Positions 37,637 to 49,039 of a DNA stretch of 54,361 bases are shown one piece after another. The notes under the pieces were generated by a model. It saw only the letters and a list, made by a program, of their open reading frames with translations, had not been told where the DNA came from and ran no database searches. Within the stretch, counting starts at the first letter, position 1, and each line of letters begins with the position of its first letter. A program made the translations under genes and the position numbers. Source of the stretch: Thermoplasmata archaeon (GTDB taxonomy: Archaea; Thermoplasmatota; Thermoplasmata; Lutacidiplasmatales; UBA184); NCBI GenBank assembly GCA_030037875.1, contig JASHPV010000183.1:1-54361 (forward strand), written 5' to 3'.

Positions 37637-40600
37637 TCAAGTGGGAGCGACGGGGAAGGCGACCTTCAACATCTCAACCTCTCCCGGGGTCAAAAGTCGA
37701 GGGTTGACCGGCACCCACACCGCGGTCCCGGAGGCCTGGGCTCGCACGTGCAGCTCCCGGAGCAGTTTCAACACGGGCGCCAGCGTGTTGACCGTGACGA
37801 GGTACTCGAAGCCTTCGAGCAGCACCGCACTGACGTGGCCCTCTCCCAGCGCACTAACGAAGAGCGTCTCGAGCGCCGCGACGTCGCTTGGCCGCACCGA
37901 GTTCTGACGCCCGACATTGGAGAGCCAGATCACGGTGATGTCCCGAGTTCCGATGCGCCGGCGGAGCCGGTCCGGAAACTCTCGCGTGACGCAAAGACCC
38001 CGGCGGCCGACCGACACGGCATCGAGGAATCGGCTCCAGGCCGCGTCCGTGGTGTCCTCGACGAGGAGTTCGATGCCTTGATGGAGCAAGGACGTCGGCG
38101 CAGGTGCCGCTTCGGCCACGTCCGCGGACACGGGCGGTTTCCACGGGGGAAGCGGAACGGCTTCGGGTCGGGGAGCCGGCGGAGCCACTGCGCGGATCAC
38201 GGGAGGGGTCGCTGCGGGACCCGCGCGCGGGAGGGCGGGAGTGGAGACACTCGGCAGAGTCGGGACCGAGGCACTGGGAGACGCCGAGGAGATCGGTTCG
38301 GGCACCGTCGGTTCTGGGAGAGACTCCGGGGGCGCAGCCTCCGGTTCGGGAGCGGGCTCCGGCTCGGGAGGCTCAACGCGCGGGGGAGGCCAGACCCAGA
38401 TACGGTCCGGGACCGCTCCTCCGAAGTGGCGGACCACCTCCCGGGCGAGATACGGTCCGAATCCGGGCACGGTGACCAGCTTCTCGTACGGCGCGTGGGA
38501 AAGGGACTCGAAATCTGTGAATCCCGCGTCCCAGGCGGCGGCGAGCTTGGTGACACCCAAGTAGGGTGCGCCGACGGCCTGGTCGAGTTGCTCCAGCGTA
38601 CCGTGGAGGGTCGTCTCCCGGTTCCGTACCTCCTCACTCAAGAAATCCGGACCCTCGGACTCCACCGGTTCGAAGCGTACGGCCTGGCGCCCCCGTCGGC
38701 CAAGATGCCGGGAAACGCGGGCCTTGCGCCGTCCCACCGGTCGTGGGAGGCCCGGTACCCAGATCCGCCATCGCGTGCCGACCGCGGTCCGGCCATTCGT
38801 GGTCTCTCCAGGGATGAACCGCGTCCCGCTCGACACCGCCTCAAAGCGAGGTACGCGAAGAGACTGTGCAATCGCCACGGCATGGCTTCGGAGCTCCTCC
38901 TCGAGCGCCGGAGGCGCCTCGACCCAAACCTCCGTGATGTTCGAACCCGCCGGCGCGGAGGTCAGTCGTCGACGCGCCGAACGCACTACGCGGTACGCGT
39001 CGGGACCTAGCCCTAACATTAGGTCGAGCGCGGCGGAGCTGGTTCCTTGGGGGAGCTTGAGATACAGCTCTCCCTGGGGCGCCGGCAGCACCATCATCCC
39101 GGGAGGGAGCGCGTCGATCAGTTCGACCATCGACGGGAGCAGCTGTACGGGGCTCGCGCCGAGCACAACGCTGAGCGTCTGATTCCGCAGCGCCTCCTTG
39201 ACCCTCTTCCCGGGCATCTGAGAGACCAACGTGGCGATCCGCCCGGCGCTCGCCCGATAGACGCGCTGGAGCTCGGCCAGGTTCGGTTCGACGCGGATCT
39301 GGCGGCCTTCCCACGGGCGGGCCGGTGAGGCGATCTCGATGCTCTCGGTTGGAAGCACGCGCGTGAGAACGGGCAGCAGGGCCTGGAGTTCCGCGGCGAC
39401 CGCCTCGTCGCGCGCATTGACCACGACGCTGGCCCACCGAATCGAACGCGGCAACGACAGCCGGTGACGGGCCCGCTCGACGGCCAGGGCGATCGGAACG
39501 AGTCGGTCCAGCAGCTTCTCGGAGGCCGGATCGACGAGACTCTGTCGGACCGGGGCAAGCGGCGCCTCGAACAGGCTCCGGGCGTCGTCCCGAAGGGAAC
39601 GGTCGATGGCCTCCATGGTGAAGGGAGCGAAGGGGGCCCACAGCTGTGCGAGCCCAGACACCACGTAGACCAGCACTCGTTCAGCGGCCGTTTTGCCGGG
39701 GCTTTGAGCGGCCTCATCGAGGCGGCTTCGAGCGATCAGCAGGTACTGCTCCCGGAGGTCGTGGTCGGCGAACCGGGTGATGCGGTCGAGCGTTTGGGGG
39801 AACCGCCCCGCGGCCAATCCCGCCAGCGCGTCGGCCCGAAACCGTTCGAAGCGGGACACGAAGGCCCGGTCCTCTTCGGGCAACGAATCTCGGACCCGGG
39901 CGAGGGACTGGTCCCCGAGCGGAAGGCCGTCCCGAGCGAGGCTTCCGGAGAGCTGGTACGCCACTCGCCAAAATCTCCGTAGGTGCCGCACATCCTCGGC
40001 CACTACGGACGCGAGGGGGGAGGCAGCCCGGCGTCGGGTGGCCATCCGAACGAGAGCGCAGCGGACCGCGTCGACGGGAGCGGCCGGGTCCACGCGAGCC
40101 GAGGCCTCGTCCACGGAACCGGTCGGCACGAGGATGAGGCGAGTGTCGGCCGGACGCGCGGACGCCGCGAACTGGCCGACGAGGTGGGTCAACAGCAGTG
40201 GCCCCCTCCGCTGTTCGGGCAATAGCAGTCCGACCCCATTGTCCGTGGGAAATGGGTTCATGCGGGCCCATCGGTAGAGCGCCTCATTGAACACCGGAAG
40301 CAGACGCCGCCGTACTTCGACTCGAACGCCTCCACAGGAGCATTTGGGACCCGTCCCCGCCGGTGCGAGCCGTGAGCAGCTTCCACACTCTTGGAGGGCC
40401 GGGTACGCGGGGTCCTCGGTGGTCCGTGCGTCGGTCGCCGGCCAAGGCACCACCTCCGACGCCAAGGGTAGCGCCTCCCCGGGCAGAAGCTGCTTGAAAA
40501 GGTACAACGTTTCGGCGTCGATCCGGTCCGGTTCCAGCCTCCACGCCCGGCCGGGCCTCCAGAAGAGACCGGTCCCGCAGTCCCCGCACCGCGGAACTCC

Positions 40601-41686
40601 GTGCCGGACGCGCAACTGAGCGAAGATGAGGGCACCGTCGTTCAGATCCCGCAGGATGAACGCCTCGGCGGTATCCACGGGGAGGCCCTGGTACTTGTGT
40701 GCCGATTGTCCTTCCAATCTCCCGTTAGCCGAGAGGACCGGCCATCCCGGGATCTCGAGTTTTTCGGCGATGCGCGCGTCCGACGCCCCGTGTGCCGGGG
40801 TCAAGGTGACGATGCCGGTACCGCTGTCTCCCACCTCGACCGACGTCTGGAGGAGCCCTCCCGGGCTGAGCAACGAGTAGAGTGGAGGGTACTCCGAGCC
40901 CAAGGGATGGACGTACGCCCGACCCTGCCAGGAGGCGCCGGGGTGCTCCTCGAGCACCTCGATCTCGGAATCGGGGAGCCACGCCCGGAGACGGTCCAAG
41001 CTGGATTTGCTGGTGAGAACCCTCTCTTCCGACCCCCGCCGGGTGAATTTTGCGATAACGTACGGCAGGGTCGGATTCAGGAGCACCGCCGTCGTGCCGA
41101 GAAGTTTCCAGGCCGAGTCCGTCCACACCAACGCGTCGACCCGGGGCTCGGTGTCGCGCAGGGCGAACCGGACGAGGTAAGCGGGACCCTCCTCGTCCAC
41201 GTAAACGAGGTTCGCAGGTCCCTTCGGCTCGCGGCAACGAGGACACCAACGGAGCGGGCCTTCCTTGGCGACCAGGACATTGGTCTCGGCCAACCGGCCA
41301 AGCATCCCATCCACGATCGTGGTGAGCTCCGGACGGACCGTCGGTTCCAGCGCACCATGGCCGTACCAGAGTCCCAACCCCTCCCACTGGGCCGCGGCCG
41401 TGGGGGGCACGCCCTCGCCGGGTCGGGTCCCGAACAGGACCGGTCCCGTGGCGGTTCGCTCGAGGAGAAGCTGCGCCCGCGCGGCCACGTCGGCGAGCAG
41501 CCCTCGCTGGAGCAACGGGAGAGGAACCTCCCCCCGAGACGGAATCCCGCCGATGGAGAGGTGCGTCGGAGGCCCCCCGCGATCCGGCCGGTCGTCCGGC
41601 CCCGGCGGCAGCCCCCGCCCCGACCAGAGCTCCCGGGCCTCGCTCTCGACCGCGTGGGGATCCAATACTGGGGCCAACGCGCGCAA
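37637..41686 (-). CDS. Pseudo-isoleucyl-tRNA-synthetase-like protein fused to HhH and DUF835-like domains (1349 aa)
   Basis: IleRS-like order: LRWCPRCREPK; ALVWTDSAWKLLGTTAVLLNPTLPYV; GTGIVTLTPAHGASDARIAEKLEIPGWPVLSANGRL; HGVPRCGDCGTGLFW; CGSC..CSCGG; EDVRHLRRFWRVAYQLSG; LAQLWAPFAPFTMEAIDRSL. No HIGH or KMSKS. C-terminal HhH (TKLAAAWDAGFTDFESLSHAPYEKLVTVPGFGPYLAREVVRHFGG), Pro/Glu-rich linker, DUF835-like GLCVTREFPDRLRRRIGTRDITVIWLSN...SAVLLEGFEYLVTVNTLAPVLKLLRELH..VPVNPRLLTPGEVEML. Confidence 0.82.
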   Translation of the reverse strand: MRALAPVLDPHAVESEARELWSGRGLPPGPDDRPDRGGPPTHLSIGGIPSRGEVPLPLLQRGLLADVAARAQLLLERTATGPVLFGTRPGEGVPPTAAAQWEGLGLWYGHGALEPTVRPELTTIVDGMLGRLAETNVLVAKEGPLRWCPRCREPKGPANLVYVDEEGPAYLVRFALRDTEPRVDALVWTDSAWKLLGTTAVLLNPTLPYVIAKFTRRGSEERVLTSKSSLDRLRAWLPDSEIEVLEEHPGASWQGRAYVHPLGSEYPPLYSLLSPGGLLQTSVEVGDSGTGIVTLTPAHGASDARIAEKLEIPGWPVLSANGRLEGQSAHKYQGLPVDTAEAFILRDLNDGALIFAQLRVRHGVPRCGDCGTGLFWRPGRAWRLEPDRIDAETLYLFKQLLPGEALPLASEVVPWPATDARTTEDPAYPALQECGSCSRLAPAGTGPKCSCGGVRVEVRRRLLPVFNEALYRWARMNPFPTDNGVGLLLPEQRRGPLLLTHLVGQFAASARPADTRLILVPTGSVDEASARVDPAAPVDAVRCALVRMATRRRAASPLASVVAEDVRHLRRFWRVAYQLSGSLARDGLPLGDQSLARVRDSLPEEDRAFVSRFERFRADALAGLAAGRFPQTLDRITRFADHDLREQYLLIARSRLDEAAQSPGKTAAERVLVYVVSGLAQLWAPFAPFTMEAIDRSLRDDARSLFEAPLAPVRQSLVDPASEKLLDRLVPIALAVERARHRLSLPRSIRWASVVVNARDEAVAAELQALLPVLTRVLPTESIEIASPARPWEGRQIRVEPNLAELQRVYRASAGRIATLVSQMPGKRVKEALRNQTLSVVLGASPVQLLPSMVELIDALPPGMMVLPAPQGELYLKLPQGTSSAALDLMLGLGPDAYRVVRSARRRLTSAPAGSNITEVWVEAPPALEEELRSHAVAIAQSLRVPRFEAVSSGTRFIPGETTNGRTAVGTRWRIWVPGLPRPVGRRKARVSRHLGRRGRQAVRFEPVESEGPDFLSEEVRNRETTLHGTLEQLDQAVGAPYLGVTKLAAAWDAGFTDFESLSHAPYEKLVTVPGFGPYLAREVVRHFGGAVPDRIWVWPPPRVEPPEPEPAPEPEAAPPESLPEPTVPEPISSASPSASVPTLPSVSTPALPRAGPAATPPVIRAVAPPAPRPEAVPLPPWKPPVSADVAEAAPAPTSLLHQGIELLVEDTTDAAWSRFLDAVSVGRRGLCVTREFPDRLRRRIGTRDITVIWLSNVGRQNSVRPSDVAALETLFVSALGEGHVSAVLLEGFEYLVTVNTLAPVLKLLRELHVRAQASGTAVWVPVNPRLLTPGEVEMLKVAFPVAPT

Positions 41687-42221: not shown

Positions 42222-42350
42222 AGCGCCGGCCCTCTCCACTATCGTTCGGCCGGGGTCGCACTTTATAAAGCGGACCGTCCATCATTTTCGATGCGGGGTG
42301 CCTAGCCGTCCGGCAAGGGTCCGCGTCGCTTGGGGGATCGAGGGTTCGGC

Positions 42351-45300
42351 ATGGCAGGACTCGGCTCGCTTTCCTCCTCCCGGCTCACCAAGTTGCTCCA
42401 AGAAAAAGCGGAGCAGCTCAAGAAACGGCGCGAAACGGCCGAAGCCGTCTTCAACGAGATCGAGGCTCGAGCGGAGCTCCTCTCCGCGGTCGGAGTGACC
42501 CTCCCCGACCTCGCCAGCAAGATTCCACCCCTGCGCGAGCTGCAACGAAAGGCCGACTGGGAGGCCCTCGAGACCCAGGCGAAGAGCGTCCTGGCCGAGA
42601 TGGAACAGGCGGCGCGGGAGCCCGTCGAAGAACGGCAAGCCGCCTTGGTGAAGCGCGCAGACCGTGTCGCTCTCGTGGGGAATCCCCTCCCCGCCGAGGC
42701 CCGGGCCTTGCTGGACGAGGTGGGACCCAAGATCCGCGAAGGGCAGTGGCGAGAGGCGTTCGAGCGGTTGGCCGCGATCGAGGAGGCTCTCGCCGGCCTC
42801 GAAAAGGCATACGAGACCAGCCTGTCGGACCGGGTTCGTTCCTTCGTTCGATGGGCGACGGGTGACGACGCCGTTCCACCCGCGCTGGAGACCGAGGTCC
42901 AACCGGTTCTCGCGGACTTGAAGGGCGCGAACCCGGAACCGGCTCAGAAGCAACTCGCCGAGATTCTGGAGCGGGAATTCCCTCAAGCCGTCGAGCGGCG
43001 CACCGGGGTACGCGAGAGCGCGGAAAGAGCTGTCCCTGCGGCCCGTGAGCTGGGCGCTTCCACGGGGGGTATCGAAGCCGCGCTCGAGGCGGACAAGCGC
43101 TCGTTCATCCTGGATTGGCCCCAGAGCGTCACGTTGGTCGAGCAGGCGATCGAGGGCCTCCAAACCATCCTGAGGGACCGCGTGGCCTCGACGATCGGCT
43201 CCCTCCGAGACACCCTGGAGTCGCTTCGAACGCAGGGCGTCGACCCCAACGAAGCGCTCGCATCTCTGGAACAGATATCCGCCCAACTGAGCACCGCGAA
43301 GAGCTACGACCTGCCGGGACTGGTGGCCACCGCCCGGGAAGCCGCCGAGGGACCCGTCGTTGCTGTCGTGGCTGGGGTGCTCGACGAAGTGCGGCCCCGG
43401 TTGGTCGAGGCCAGGCGCCTGGGCCGTGATCCGAGTGACGTCTTCGCCGCGATGAATCGCGCCCGGGAGGCATTGCGCCTCCGGATCTACGGGGAGGCCA
43501 TCGCGGCCAGTCAGGAGGCGCTCGAACGGGTCAGTACCCTCATCCAGGACATCGAGGGGGTTCGTTCGGAGGCGGAGTCGGTACGCGACATGCTGTCCCG
43601 GCTAGCGAAAAATGGCTTCGCGACGGCTCCGTTCGATGCGCAGATCACCCGCTCGCTCCAGGCGCTCGACCTCGGCGACCTCTCCGGGGCTCGTCGGCTG
43701 CTCCAGGAATCGATTTCCTCGCTGGGCCGAGATGCGGTGGCGCATTTCCAGGGCCGATTGACCAATCTCTCCCAATCTGTCGCCATCGCCAAGGAACGGG
43801 GGTTCCTGCCCCCGGAGGTCGAGGCCGCGGAGCAACAGGCACGCGTGGCGCTCGACGGGGGACGGCTCGCGGACGCCGGAGCGCTGCTCGGACAGATCGA
43901 TGCGGACCTGCGGGCCGCCGCCGCACCGTACATGTCTCGCCGACTCGAGGAGATGGAGAAAGGGCTCGCCGAGATCCCCGAGGAACAAGCGGTGACCCCC
44001 GTCCGCTCCTCGATGGCGGACGCCGACGTGAACCTCCGAGTCAAGGAGGACCTGTCCGCCTCCCTAGACTGCCTTCGGCGGGCCGAGCGGGAATTCTCTG
44101 CGGTCTTCGCGGCGCGTGCCTCGTCGCTCGTCGAGGCCCTAGCGCAGGAACGCCGGGTTCTGGAGGAGATGGGAGGGACGGGCGATGCGATCCAGCGGGA
44201 GATCGACGAAGTCGAGCAGATCTTCAACATGGGCGACTTCGTCAAGGCCTCGAGGGCCGCCCAGGAGATCCGGACGCGGACCCTTCAGCAGCAGCTCGTT
44301 CGTAGCGAAGAGGCCGTTTCTCACGCGAAGCTGGCGCTAATCGAACTGGAGACAATGGGGCTCGATGTCTCTGCTCTTCGGACGGATCTCGAACTGGCCC
44401 AAGAGGCGGCCCGGAGTTCGAAGCATGCCGAAGCTTTCAAGGTCTCCGAGGCCACCGCCTCCACGGCCCGGAAACTCAAGACCGAAGCCCAGGAAGTCCT
44501 GGACCTGTTGGCCGAGACGGGGGAGCAGCACGCGGCCCTCGCCAAGCTGGGCCAGTCCGTCGAGGAGTACCGCGCGTCCGTTCAGGAAGCCAAGCAGGCG
44601 TACCAGTCGCTCGACTTTCCCCATGCCCGGGCCGTTCTCGCGCAACTCCGCGAGGAGCTGCAGAGCACGAGTCTGCGGACGGAGGCGGTCCGGCTACTCG
44701 CGGAGGCCAAGCTGGTCGTGGAGGACGGTCGCCGTCTCTCGGTTCCGATGGATGCCGCCATGGAACGGGTGGGTCACGTATCCAAGCTGTTGGAGGAAGG
44801 CCATCTCCGCGAGGCCGCGGCCGAGATTCGGTCCGTGCACGCCGAGCTCATCTCGCTGGTACGGCCGGTGCTGGAAGAGAACCTGCGAGCGGTGGAGAGC
44901 GACGCCGATACGGCCCGCGGCATCGGCCTCGACGTGGCAGCGGTGGCCGCGACGCTCGGGGAGGCGCGGCGTCGACTCAGCCAGCCCGTGCCGACCGGCG
45001 TGGCGCCGCTGATCGAGAGTGCCCGTTCCCAGTTCTTCGAGAGCCGGGGATTCCTGGAGCATTCCGACCGTGTGCTGCGGCGAGCCTCGGACGCACTCAA
45101 TCAGGCGGAACTGGTCCGCGTCGACGTGGCCCAGCCGCGCGAGCGACTCCGGAAGGTCCAAGAACTGATTGGCCAACGGGAGTACCCGAGGGCGATCGAG
45201 CAAGCGTCGTCCCTCGAACGGGAGCTCACCCAGGCCACGACCCAGCAGGTGTCCCGGTCGCTGGCCGGATTCCAGGGCCTGGTCGCTCGGGCCCGACAGC

Positions 45301-46814
45301 AAGGGGTCGACACAACCCTGGCAGAGAATTTCCTCCAGCAGGCGCGCGCGGCGCTCGACAATTCGCAACCGATCGAGGCCCTCCAGCTCGCGGCCCGGGC
45401 CGAGAGCGAAATCGAACGGGTCGAACTCCAGCACTCCATCGCCCAGGGCTCCCTCGAGACGATGGAACGAAAGCTGAGCGCGGCGGAGAAGGACGGCGTC
45501 GTCGCTCCCGCCGCCTCGGAGGAACTCGGCCGGGCCCGCACCGCGTTCGCGCGGCACGACTACGTCGAGGTTCTCGAGATGACACTGGCCACGTCCGACT
45601 CGCTCGCCATCGCCCGGGAGTACCACCGACGAGCCATGGAAGCGATCGAGGTGGCCGACCGGCACGTCAAGGAGGCCGGACATCTCTCGGCGGAGGTCTC
45701 CGAAGCCGCCGCCACATTGGCCTCGGCACGCGAGCTGGCGACCGCGGGCCAGTACGTGGACGCGATCCGGCGCGCTCGGGAGGGGTCCGAGAAAGCGCGT
45801 TGGGCCACCGAACGTCTCTACTCCGGCGGACTCGAAGAGGCCCGCCGGCTGCTTGAACTCGCCCAACGATGGGTACCCGATGCGGCACCCCAGATCGCTA
45901 CTAATGTGGACGACGCCGAAGCCGCGCTTAAGGCTCGTGAGTGGAACCGGGTCACCGACCGACTTCGCCGCGCGCGCGAGCTCGCCGACCTCTCGCTCGG
46001 AGGCGCGCTGGACGCCCGTCAGGACACCCTGCGTGGGCAGTACGATCGCATCCTCGGCGTCGATGCCGCCGAGAAGGATCGCCGCGCCGAGGTACTGCGC
46101 CGGCTTTCGGAGCTACGGGGCCGGCATGCCTATACCGACGCCTTCGAAACCGCTCGAGAGGAGGAGACGCGCCTCGCCGATACCCGCGTGACGGAACTGC
46201 GCCGCCGGACGAAGGACCTCGAGGATAGCCTCCTCGTCGGCGAGAAGCTCGGCCTCGACACCACGCCGGTCATGCAGCTGTTCAGCGAGGCGAAGATCGC
46301 CCTGCAGGCCGGGAAGGTCGATCCGGTGGGAGCCCTGCTCGACAAGGCGATGGCGCTCCTGGGCACCATCGTGAAGCCCCGCGTGTCGGACAAGCTGCGG
46401 GACGTCCGCGCCGAGTACGTGTTCGCCCGGGACGGTCTCAACGTGAACCTCGGAACCGTCGGGGAGATCCTGGATGGAATCCCCCGCCTCGTCGAACGTG
46501 GGGAGCTCGTGGATGCGGCCCGGATGCTGCTGAGCTGCGAGGAGCAGGTCAACCAGCGGAAGGCGCAGCAGCGCGAATTGACGAACCTGCACTATCTCGT
46601 CGACGCCGCCCTGTCCCAGGCCCGGGAAAAGGGCTTGGACACCACGAAGGCCCAGGAGTTGCTGTCGGCCTCGATACAGGCGCGGAGCACGGATTATGGC
46701 GTGGCGCTCGAAAAGGCCCGACAGGCCCATGAGACGCTCAAGGCCCTGCTGAAGCCCCCGGAGGCGCCCAGCACGTTCTGGCCGTTCCGTCGCGCTCCCG
46801 GGAGCGGGACCTAG
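42351..46814 (+). CDS. Giant all-helical repeat protein, unknown function (~1487 aa)
   Basis: Continuous charged helical sequence with recurrent ~75-90 aa units (e.g. ARQQGVDTTLAENFLQQARAALDNSQPIEALQLAARAESEIE; AREKGLDTTKAQELLSASIQARSTDYGVALEKARQAHETL). No TM, no recognised catalytic motif. Start at MAGLGSL 42351. Confidence 0.85.
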   Translation: MAGLGSLSSSRLTKLLQEKAEQLKKRRETAEAVFNEIEARAELLSAVGVTLPDLASKIPPLRELQRKADWEALETQAKSVLAEMEQAAREPVEERQAALVKRADRVALVGNPLPAEARALLDEVGPKIREGQWREAFERLAAIEEALAGLEKAYETSLSDRVRSFVRWATGDDAVPPALETEVQPVLADLKGANPEPAQKQLAEILEREFPQAVERRTGVRESAERAVPAARELGASTGGIEAALEADKRSFILDWPQSVTLVEQAIEGLQTILRDRVASTIGSLRDTLESLRTQGVDPNEALASLEQISAQLSTAKSYDLPGLVATAREAAEGPVVAVVAGVLDEVRPRLVEARRLGRDPSDVFAAMNRAREALRLRIYGEAIAASQEALERVSTLIQDIEGVRSEAESVRDMLSRLAKNGFATAPFDAQITRSLQALDLGDLSGARRLLQESISSLGRDAVAHFQGRLTNLSQSVAIAKERGFLPPEVEAAEQQARVALDGGRLADAGALLGQIDADLRAAAAPYMSRRLEEMEKGLAEIPEEQAVTPVRSSMADADVNLRVKEDLSASLDCLRRAEREFSAVFAARASSLVEALAQERRVLEEMGGTGDAIQREIDEVEQIFNMGDFVKASRAAQEIRTRTLQQQLVRSEEAVSHAKLALIELETMGLDVSALRTDLELAQEAARSSKHAEAFKVSEATASTARKLKTEAQEVLDLLAETGEQHAALAKLGQSVEEYRASVQEAKQAYQSLDFPHARAVLAQLREELQSTSLRTEAVRLLAEAKLVVEDGRRLSVPMDAAMERVGHVSKLLEEGHLREAAAEIRSVHAELISLVRPVLEENLRAVESDADTARGIGLDVAAVAATLGEARRRLSQPVPTGVAPLIESARSQFFESRGFLEHSDRVLRRASDALNQAELVRVDVAQPRERLRKVQELIGQREYPRAIEQASSLERELTQATTQQVSRSLAGFQGLVARARQQGVDTTLAENFLQQARAALDNSQPIEALQLAARAESEIERVELQHSIAQGSLETMERKLSAAEKDGVVAPAASEELGRARTAFARHDYVEVLEMTLATSDSLAIAREYHRRAMEAIEVADRHVKEAGHLSAEVSEAAATLASARELATAGQYVDAIRRAREGSEKARWATERLYSGGLEEARRLLELAQRWVPDAAPQIATNVDDAEAALKAREWNRVTDRLRRARELADLSLGGALDARQDTLRGQYDRILGVDAAEKDRRAEVLRRLSELRGRHAYTDAFETAREEETRLADTRVTELRRRTKDLEDSLLVGEKLGLDTTPVMQLFSEAKIALQAGKVDPVGALLDKAMALLGTIVKPRVSDKLRDVRAEYVFARDGLNVNLGTVGEILDGIPRLVERGELVDAARMLLSCEEQVNQRKAQQRELTNLHYLVDAALSQAREKGLDTTKAQELLSASIQARSTDYGVALEKARQAHETLKALLKPPEAPSTFWPFRRAPGSGT

Positions 46815-47395: not shown

Positions 47396-47498
47396 GCTCC
47401 CGTAGTCTAGTGGTCAAGGATAGAGGCCTCTCGAGCCTCTGACGCGGGTTCAAATCTGCGCCGGACCGGTCCGGCCGGTGAAACTCCCGCCGGGAGCA
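47396..47498 (+). tRNA. tRNA-Glu(CTC) with a T-loop intron
   Basis: Acceptor GCTCCCG/CGGGAGC, D-arm GTCT-AGTGGTCAA-GGAT, anticodon arm GAGGC-CTCTCGA-GCCTC (CTC at 47430-47432), T-arm GCGGG-TTCAAA|T-CCCGC once 47455-47484 is removed, discriminator A73; no encoded CCA. Confidence 0.93.
47455..47484 (+). other. Predicted archaeal tRNA intron, 30 nt, position 59/60
   Basis: TCTGCGCCGGACCGGTCCGGCCGGTGAAAC. BHB: outer helix GCGGG:CCCGC, 3' bulge ACT, central 4-bp TTCA:TGAA, 5' bulge AAT, inner hairpin including CCGGACC:GGTCCGG. Confidence 0.9.
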
Positions 47499-48151: not shown

Positions 48152-48217
48152 CGCGCCCTCGGCCCATAGATGGGGTTACTTGACTTGAAGTCCTCGTCCG
48201 AGACAGGCGGGGCCGAT

Positions 48218-49039
48218 ATGTCGACCCGATATCTCGTCGTGGTCAGCGAGGCGGATTCCACGGCATCGTTCATCGCCGAGCGATGGGGGACCCCGCCGAG
48301 TATCGGTGAATTCGTCGAGGGGTCCGCGCTGCGGCAACTCGCTCCGGAAGTGGAGCTGCTTCGGCGCCCGGGTCTTCATGTCCTCGATGCGTCGCTCAGC
48401 CATGCCCTGCCCGAACGGCTTCGGTCAGTTCCGATCGTATTCCCGGCCCGGCACCGGAGCGAGAGCGGCATCGCTTGTCTGACGGTTCACCCGCTTGGTA
48501 ACCTCGGACCGACGGCGGAAGTGGGGGGCGAGCCCGGCCGGCTCGTCCCCACTGCTGCCCGTCTGATGGCCGACGCGTTACGGCAGCTGGAGGAGCCGGC
48601 TCGGGCCATCGCGGTACCCGTTACCTATGAGGCCACGCATCACGGTCCTTTGCTGCACCAACCGGCCTTCTTCGTGGAAATCGCTGACGCGTTACCGGAG
48701 GCCGAAAGGCGCGCCGTGGCGATTCCTCTTGCCGACTCGCTATTGGACCTGGATGAGGATCCGGCCGACCGGGTGGTCGTCGGCGTCGGGGGAGGGCACT
48801 ACGCCCCGCACTTCACCGAACTAGCTCTGACACGCCGCTGGGCTTTTGGTCACATGGTTCCCCGACACGCCTTGGAAGGTCTCACCGCGGACGTGCAACG
48901 GCAACTTCGGGGCGGATCCCCTTCGGCGGAAGGCGTGCTCTTCCAGCGGGCGGCGGATGCGGACCGGCCCGAATGGAAGGGCTGGGGCGCGCGACTTCGT
49001 GACCCCGACGCTCCCCCGCGACCAACGGGCGAGGCGTAG
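48218..49039 (+). CDS. dtdA: D-aminoacyl-tRNA deacylase (DtdA/DTD2)
   Basis: YLVVVSEADSTASFIAERW...PIVFPARHRSESGIACLTVHPLGNLGPTAEVGGEPG..VPTAARLMADALRQL...VTYEATHHGP...VVGVGGGHYAPHFTELAL..WAFGHMVPRHAL. Confidence 0.93.
   Translation: MSTRYLVVVSEADSTASFIAERWGTPPSIGEFVEGSALRQLAPEVELLRRPGLHVLDASLSHALPERLRSVPIVFPARHRSESGIACLTVHPLGNLGPTAEVGGEPGRLVPTAARLMADALRQLEEPARAIAVPVTYEATHHGPLLHQPAFFVEIADALPEAERRAVAIPLADSLLDLDEDPADRVVVGVGGGHYAPHFTELALTRRWAFGHMVPRHALEGLTADVQRQLRGGSPSAEGVLFQRAADADRPEWKGWGARLRDPDAPPRPTGEA

What the first reader, a model, noticed from the sequence alone, without database searches (positions are those of the whole stretch)
47396..47498. tRNA-Glu(CTC) interrupted in the T-loop by a 30-nt BHB intron
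Seen: read contiguously the tRNA fails (T-stem GCGGG faces CTGCG). Removing 47455-47484 yields a perfect T-arm GCGGG-TTCAAAT-CCCGC and acceptor GCTCCCG/CGGGAGC. The junction forms a strict 3-nt bulge (AAT) / 4-bp (TTCA:TGAA) / 3-nt bulge (ACT) motif with the T-stem as outer helix and a strong inner hairpin. Established: archaeal splicing endonucleases cut such BHBs, and non-canonical intron positions are best known from Crenarchaeota/Thermoproteota and are less common in euryarchaeal lineages. A T-loop intron means the TPsiC arm cannot form until splicing.
Basis: partly seen in the sequence, partly recalled or inferred. Interest (0 to 1): 0.85.

Follow-up and report, generated by a model that had tools for sequence, protein, structure and literature searches.

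The report
T-loop intron in archaeal tRNA-Glu gene
The gene for one glutamate tRNA in this soil archaeon (order Lutacidiplasmatales) carries a 30-base intron in an unusual place, the T-loop, and so do a dozen other tRNA genes of the same genome, which is unexpected for an archaeon whose only splicing enzyme is of the type thought to handle only the standard intron position.

Summary
tRNA-Glu(CTC) at 47396-47498 contains a 30-nt intron (47455-47484) between tRNA positions 59 and 60, flanked by a full 3-4-3 bulge-helix-bulge (BHB). It is the genome's only detected Glu(CTC) gene. The same intron position is found in 89 of 107 scoreable homologous loci from related Thermoplasmata. Those introns are 26-32 nt and hypervariable in sequence, but keep the exon-intron pairing and covary strongly in the intron helix; the other 18 loci have a clean T-arm.

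The finding is larger than this one gene. The genome has 13 tRNA genes with a T-loop 59/60 intron (of 37 found). All 46 sampled genomes of the family carry 4-14, against 0-5 in other Thermoplasmata.

The only splicing endonuclease is a two-domain α'2 enzyme without a broad-specificity loop insertion. Published reviews call this type strict and describe euryarchaeal tRNA introns as few and canonical in position.

My explanation: the T-arm (5 bp, 7-nt loop, intron after loop nucleotide 6) is a geometric copy of the anticodon arm with its 37/38 intron, so a motif-strict enzyme can cut it. Splicing itself was not observed. The kind (archaeal BHB tRNA intron, position 59/60) is known; its abundance in this enzyme background is the news.

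The parts
47396..47498 (+). tRNA-Glu(CTC) gene, intron-containing precursor (exon 1 + intron + exon 2, A73 included)
47396..47454 (+). exon 1: tRNA positions 1-59, ending ...GCGGG-TTCAAA
   Evidence: identical 5' part in uninterrupted genes of sister genera
47455..47484 (+). 30-nt intron TCTGCGCCGGACCGGTCCGGCCGGTGAAAC at position 59/60
   Evidence: removal gives the mature 73-nt tRNA
47485..47498 (+). exon 2: tRNA positions 60-73 (T60, T-stem CCCGC, acceptor CGGGAGC, A73)
47449..47452 (+). exon strand of the central 4-bp BHB helix (T54 T55 C56 A57) pairing with intron TGAA 47479-47482
   Evidence: pairing of 54, 55 and 56 kept in 70/70 Glu introns; base 57 covaries with intron -6 across isotypes
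47453..47455 (+). 5' bulge A58 A59 | T (predicted cut after 47454)
   Evidence: geometry of the BHB; inferred cut site
47456..47478 (+). inner intron helix and hairpin
   Evidence: fold; covariation of inner pairs
47483..47485 (+). 3' bulge A C | T60 (predicted cut after 47484)
   Evidence: AC in 60 of 70 distinct Glu introns
47444..47448 (+). T-stem 5' strand GCGGG, outer helix of the BHB; pairs with CCCGC 47486-47490

Best explanation
This is a genuine archaeal tRNA intron, excised by the genome's single alpha-prime-2 splicing endonuclease, with the halves presumably joined by the RtcB ligase present in the genome. It is one of 13 T-loop (59/60) introns in this genome. T-loop introns occur sporadically across Thermoplasmata and have accumulated strongly in this family. 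The proposed reason the strict enzyme can use this place is geometry: like the anticodon arm, the T-arm is 5 bp plus a 7-nt loop, and the intron sits after loop nucleotide 6 in both (37/38 and 59/60). So outer helix, 3-nt bulge, 4-bp helix (loop nucleotides 1-4 with the intron's 3' end), 3-nt bulge and inner helix come out in the same register. Shown here: the motif, its conservation and covariation, the enzyme type and the distribution. Inferred: actual splicing, the enzyme as the cutter, and geometry as the reason for the position.
For: Exact BHB at the junction. Homologous intron in 89 of 107 scoreable loci, absent cleanly in 18. In 70 distinct Glu introns T54, T55 and C56 pair with the intron in 70/70, and most inner pairs exceed all 500 shuffles in pairing and in mutual information. 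Across 109 introns of many isotypes G57 always meets C at intron -6 (19/19), whereas A57 meets G or T (86/90). A 12-sequence, multi-isotype T-arm alignment has covariation score 0.654 against 0.18 shuffled and 0.09-0.18 when slid. 13 T-loop introns in this genome, with a clean score gap (26.9 bits and above, then 14.3). 46 of 46 family genomes carry 4-14. Endonuclease: one ORF with two PF01974 domains and catalytic Tyr/His/Lys motifs in the C-terminal domain. RtcB present. The Glu intron maps as one change on the endonuclease tree, support 100/99.
Against: No RNA data. In most relatives the fourth base pair of the central helix is A57 opposite G, not a standard pair (52/70), so many of these motifs are not perfectly strict even though the window's is; the enzyme may be less strict than reviews say. 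Three D-arm insertions in the same genome (Pro, iMet, Lys) suggest positions are not limited to the two 7-nt loops. The alpha-prime-2 type is general in the sampled class, so the enzyme type alone does not explain why this family is enriched.
Confidence: 0.93

Rival explanations
1. [quoted passage not shown] or they were brought in by such elements through intron-bearing attP sites. This concerns why the introns are there, and is compatible with the splicing explanation.
For: T-arm and anticodon arm are both dyad-symmetric integrase targets (PMC8371274). Randau and Soll's shielding hypothesis and Sugahara et al. 2012's attP model of intron gain are described in PMC3293823. Introns recur at one exact site in many isotypes.
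Against: No integrase, provirus or att site was examined here. Thaumarchaeal tRNA genes with introns are still used as integration targets (PMC8371274). The Glu intron behaves as one old change inherited vertically.
Confidence: 0.25
2. Decayed or pseudogenised tRNA: the 30 nt are a random insertion and the gene is dead.
For: Standard tools read the locus as a poor or truncated tRNA.
Against: Exons are almost unchanged across dozens of species while the intron drifts under pairing constraint. It is the only Glu(CTC) gene found in the genome.
Confidence: 0.01
3. Recent spread by intron copying between tRNA genes, as described for Thermoproteales, produced the 13 T-loop introns.
For: Many isotypes carry an intron at the same site.
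Against: Introns of different isotypes in this genome are not recognisably copies: best pair 76% (Ser-CGA and His) against a shuffled-set maximum of 73%. Same-isotype introns of a sister species are mostly more alike (65-90% for seven of eight, 58% for Ala).
Confidence: 0.1
4. The tRNA is made in pieces: a permuted or trans-spliced tRNA, since known permuted tRNAs open at exactly 59/60.
For: Permuted tRNAs of Thermofilum pendens and Cyanidioschyzon merolae use the same 59/60 BHB (PMC3218864).
Against: Here both exons lie in normal order 30 nt apart, with a closed inner hairpin.
Confidence: 0.01

Closest known systems
Non-canonical archaeal tRNA introns at 59/60 and other positions (mainly Thermoproteales and other Crenarchaeota; PMC4090602, PMC3218864, PMC8450103)
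   Same: BHB at the exon-intron junction; short intron; position 59/60 is on the published list of non-canonical sites
   Different: Found in a Thermoplasmatota (euryarchaeal) family with an alpha-prime-2 enzyme instead of (alpha-beta)2. One site, the T-loop, dominates here: 13 T-loop insertions against 3 in D-arms among those seen in this genome.
Canonical archaeal tRNA introns at 37/38 (e.g. Tyr, Met and Leu(TAA) of this genome)
   Same: 5-bp stem, 7-nt loop, intron after loop nucleotide 6, 3-4-3 BHB register
   Different: Located in the T-arm, so the T-loop/D-loop elbow, not the anticodon, is disrupted before splicing
Permuted tRNAs of Thermofilum pendens and Cyanidioschyzon merolae opened at 59/60 (PMC3218864)
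   Same: BHB at exactly the same tRNA position
   Different: Halves are in permuted order there; here they are in normal order with an intron
Alpha-prime-2 splicing endonucleases of Archaeoglobus fulgidus, Thermoplasma acidophilum and Ferroplasma (PMC6379350, PMC8707768)
   Same: Two tandem PF01974 domains in one chain, catalytic triad in the C-terminal one, no CSL/ASL loop
   Different: Reviews rate the A. fulgidus and T. acidophilum enzymes as narrow in specificity and link alpha-4/alpha-prime-2 to canonical-position introns; this genome gives its enzyme many T-loop substrates

Membership tests
Archaeal BHB tRNA intron | Removal of the insert restores a canonical tRNA of the expected isotype | tested here: met
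   73-nt tRNA-Glu(CTC), same body as uninterrupted genes of sister genera
Archaeal BHB tRNA intron | Strict BHB: 3-nt bulge, 4-bp helix, 3-nt bulge at the exon-intron junction | tested here: met
   AAT / TTCA:TGAA / ACT in the window. In most relatives the fourth pair is A opposite G.
Archaeal BHB tRNA intron | Conserved across species with structure kept and sequence free to drift (covariation) | tested here: met
Archaeal BHB tRNA intron | Genome encodes a splicing endonuclease and an RtcB-type ligase | tested here: met
Archaeal BHB tRNA intron | Spliced mature tRNA and excised intron observed in RNA | not testable with these tools
   No RNA data available
Broad-specificity splicing system ((alpha-beta)2 with CSL or epsilon-2 with ASL) | Heterotetrameric or three-unit endonuclease with a CSL or ASL loop insertion | tested here: not met
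   Two domains in one ORF in 59 of 61 genomes, none found in two others. No insertion relative to other Thermoplasmata enzymes or, in the ASL region, to A. fulgidus 2GJW. Loop positions taken from PMC12397907.
Thermoproteales-type intron transposition | Near-identical introns shared by different isotypes of one genome | tested here: not met
   Best pair 76% identity against shuffled maximum 73%; only one genome tested
Permuted or split tRNA | Halves in permuted order or at separate loci | tested here: not met
   Exons in order, 30 nt apart

The most novel reading that the evidence does not exclude
In Lutacidiplasmatales the T-loop has become a second standard intron address. Because the T-arm copies the anticodon arm's 5-bp/7-nt geometry, a motif-strict alpha-prime-2 endonuclease, without loop insertions or subunit diversification, can serve about a third of all tRNA genes there, and the introns are kept because they break the T-arm attachment site of integrating elements. 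This would overturn the rule that intron diversity follows endonuclease type.
Probability: 0.25. Interest if true: 0.7.

Novelty: new member of a known kind. Interest (0 to 1): 0.5.

Why it matters
Reviews state that α4/α'2 euryarchaea have few tRNA introns (under 10% of genes), all at the canonical position, and that intron diversity co-evolved with broad-specificity enzymes (PMC4090602, PMC12397907). Here an α'2 lineage has T-loop introns in about 35% of the tRNA genes found. That separates motif from position: the enzyme may read BHB geometry wherever a 5-bp/7-nt arm provides it. The system gives a clean natural test, because sister genera differ in the same gene. It also has a practical side: generic tRNA finders give wrong ends, or even the wrong strand, for such genes, and may under-count tRNAs in these genomes.

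Tried and rejected
The 22-nt genomic match to the intron core (G000 C65:46382-46403) lies in what looks like protein-coding sequence (its translation reads like an isopropylmalate-synthase-type enzyme, by eye) with no tRNA around it, and is taken as chance. The first mixed-isotype MAFFT alignment (A1) was out of register in the D-arm and was not used for a model. A4 placed gaps inside the intron helix and was replaced by equal-length introns (A5). Intron copying between isotypes was tested and not supported. A search for literature on T-loop introns in Thermoplasmatales found none in the open library; Marck and Grosjean 2003 and Sugahara et al. 2008 are not held, so prior mention of single cases there cannot be excluded.

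Full report
WHAT IS THERE. The window is contig C22 of a 1.77-Mb archaeal draft genome (187 contigs, 90.5% complete). At 47396-47498 it holds a tRNA-Glu(CTC) gene that cannot form a T-arm when read straight through. Removing 47455-47484 (30 nt) gives a perfect tRNA. The junction has T-stem GCGGG/CCCGC as outer helix; 4-bp helix T54-T55-C56-A57 with intron TGAA; 5' bulge A58 A59 T and 3' bulge A C T60; and an inner intron hairpin. The cuts inferred from the motif are after 47454 and after 47484. Sequence alone would also allow a shift of +1 or +2 with the same product. ARAGORN and Rfam both see the gene but end it wrongly inside the intron. In one sister species ARAGORN even reports it on the opposite strand.

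IT IS CONSERVED AND COVARIES. A DNA search of 60 relatives and a pattern scan of the GTDB genome collection gave 109 homologous Glu(CTC) loci in the script (the two collections overlap, so some loci are the same gene twice). Of 107 that could be scored, 89 have an intron at exactly this place and 18 have a clean TTCAAATCCCGC. The intron-bearing records include Ca. Lutacidiplasma silvani AcS3-62 and UBA184, which, with matching contig lengths (G005 C4 and JAKIWV010000004; G002 C83 and JASHQC010000059), places the genome in the Lutacidiplasmatales of Thermoplasmatota (PMC9287336). The 70 distinct introns are 26-32 nt. T54, T55 and C56 pair with the intron in all 70; the inner helix varies by compensatory changes well beyond shuffles at most of its pairs. 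The fourth central pair is a standard pair (A57-T) in the window and 13 others, but A57·G in 52. Across 109 T-loop introns of many isotypes, G57 always meets C (19/19) and A57 meets G or T (86/90). This is covariation between exon and intron. A multi-isotype alignment scored 0.654 for covariation against 0.18 for shuffles and 0.09-0.18 for slid controls.

IT IS NOT ALONE. A structure script on the tRNA loci of this genome found the same kind of T-loop intron in Glu(CTC), Asn, Gly(TCC), Ser(GCT), Ser(CGA), Ser(GGA), Arg(TCT), Arg(TCG), Ala(GGC), Gln(CTG), Asp and Lys(TTT) and in His: 13 of the 37 tRNA genes located (36 tRNA-family matches plus His). A covariance model of the T-arm with intron (R2) recovers exactly these 13, at 26.9 to 55.6 bits, with the next match at 14.3 bits. 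The better-assembled sister G005 has 14 above the same gap. Over 201 Thermoplasmata genomes, all 46 of this family have 4-14 at E<=0.001; of 155 others 42 have 1-5 and 113 have none. Of 30 such loci outside the family that were read, 28 passed the automatic test for a complete tRNA with the T-loop intron, and the other two also read by eye as tRNA 3' halves with a T-loop intron. A phylum-wide sample gave 0-5 outside the family. T-loop introns are therefore an occasional feature of the phylum that has multiplied in this family. In this genome canonical 37/38 introns are called in Tyr, Met and Leu(TAA) (ARAGORN labels the last Arg, I read it as Leu), and Lys(TTT), Pro(TGG) and iMet have D-arm insertions that look like introns (not tested further).

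THE ENZYME. The genome has one splicing endonuclease: two PF01974 domains in one reading frame. Of 61 relatives, 59 have two domains and no further copy; two genomes gave no hit. Nearest solved structures are archaeal tRNA-splicing endonucleases. The C-terminal domain keeps the catalytic motif FKYGxHFRxY, the His and the VRK/VKK Lys; aligned with other Thermoplasmata enzymes there is no insertion where the broad-specificity loops sit. This is an α'2 enzyme, the type described as strict for canonical BHB (PMC6379350, PMC12397907, PMC4090602). One group holds that homodimeric enzymes also cut looser motifs (PMC8707768). An RtcB ligase is present.

HOW IT MOST LIKELY WORKS. The T-arm and the anticodon arm share the same plan: 5 bp, 7-nt loop. 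The intron follows loop nucleotide 6 in both (59/60 and 37/38), so the BHB elements fall in the same register relative to the outer stem. A motif-reading enzyme that needs no mature tRNA body could cut both. The T-stem forms in the precursor; the 7-nt T-loop and the elbow contact with the D-loop form only after splicing, so T-loop modifications and end processing that need the elbow should follow splicing (inference from general tRNA biology). Shown: motif, conservation, covariation, enzyme type, distribution. Not shown: splicing itself.

ORIGIN. On the endonuclease tree, species with and without the Glu intron are separated by one branch (support 100/99), so the Glu intron changed state once: a gain in the ancestor of three genera or a loss in the other four. 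This is a single-gene tree. Introns of different isotypes in this genome do not look like copies of each other, unlike the Thermoproteales case. Shielding of the T-arm attachment site from integrases, or delivery by them, is a published idea for archaeal introns (PMC3293823, PMC8371274) that fits the site but was not tested.

WHAT IS KNOWN. Position 59/60 is on the list of archaeal non-canonical intron sites (PMC4090602), and permuted tRNAs of T. pendens and C. merolae open at exactly 59/60 (PMC3218864). The same sources say non-canonical introns are almost exclusively crenarchaeal and that euryarchaea with α4/α'2 enzymes have few introns, at the canonical position. The paper that named Lutacidiplasmatales ran tRNAscan-SE in archaeal mode but its text does not mention introns. 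The kind is therefore known; the concentration of one non-canonical site in an α'2 lineage was not found described in the open literature searched.

Noticed in passing
G000 C69 (L037), C142 (L038), C28 (L045): Lys(TTT), Pro(TGG) and initiator Met genes of the same genome carry D-arm insertions that look like further non-canonical introns; Lys(TTT) has both a D-arm and a T-loop intron.
   Followed up: partly
window 37637-41686 (-): 1349-aa protein with a class I tRNA-synthetase anticodon-binding domain (PF08264), weak helix-hairpin-helix matches and a C-terminal DUF835, but no catalytic synthetase domain recognised by Pfam; possibly a synthetase-derived protein with another role.
   Followed up: partly
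window 42330-46814 (+): 1494-aa protein rich in Ala, Glu, Leu and Arg, apparently repetitive, without any Pfam match, next to the aIF5A gene.
   Followed up: no
window 48170-49039 (+): D-aminoacyl-tRNA deacylase gene (PF04414) 0.7 kb downstream of the tRNA gene.
   Followed up: no
L048 1501-1603 (+): ARAGORN places this intron-bearing tRNA-Glu on the wrong strand (1531-1603, -), an example of how such introns mislead standard annotation.
   Followed up: no
Thermoplasmata genomes of family f24 (G090, G100, G136, G105): A second group with several T-loop introns (2-5 per genome), some in tRNA genes whose length suggests a further intron.
   Followed up: partly
T-loop introns in general: The fourth pair of the BHB central helix is usually A57 opposite G rather than a standard pair, yet C is almost never used opposite A57; an A-G closing pair may be a tolerated form for this enzyme.
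   Followed up: partly
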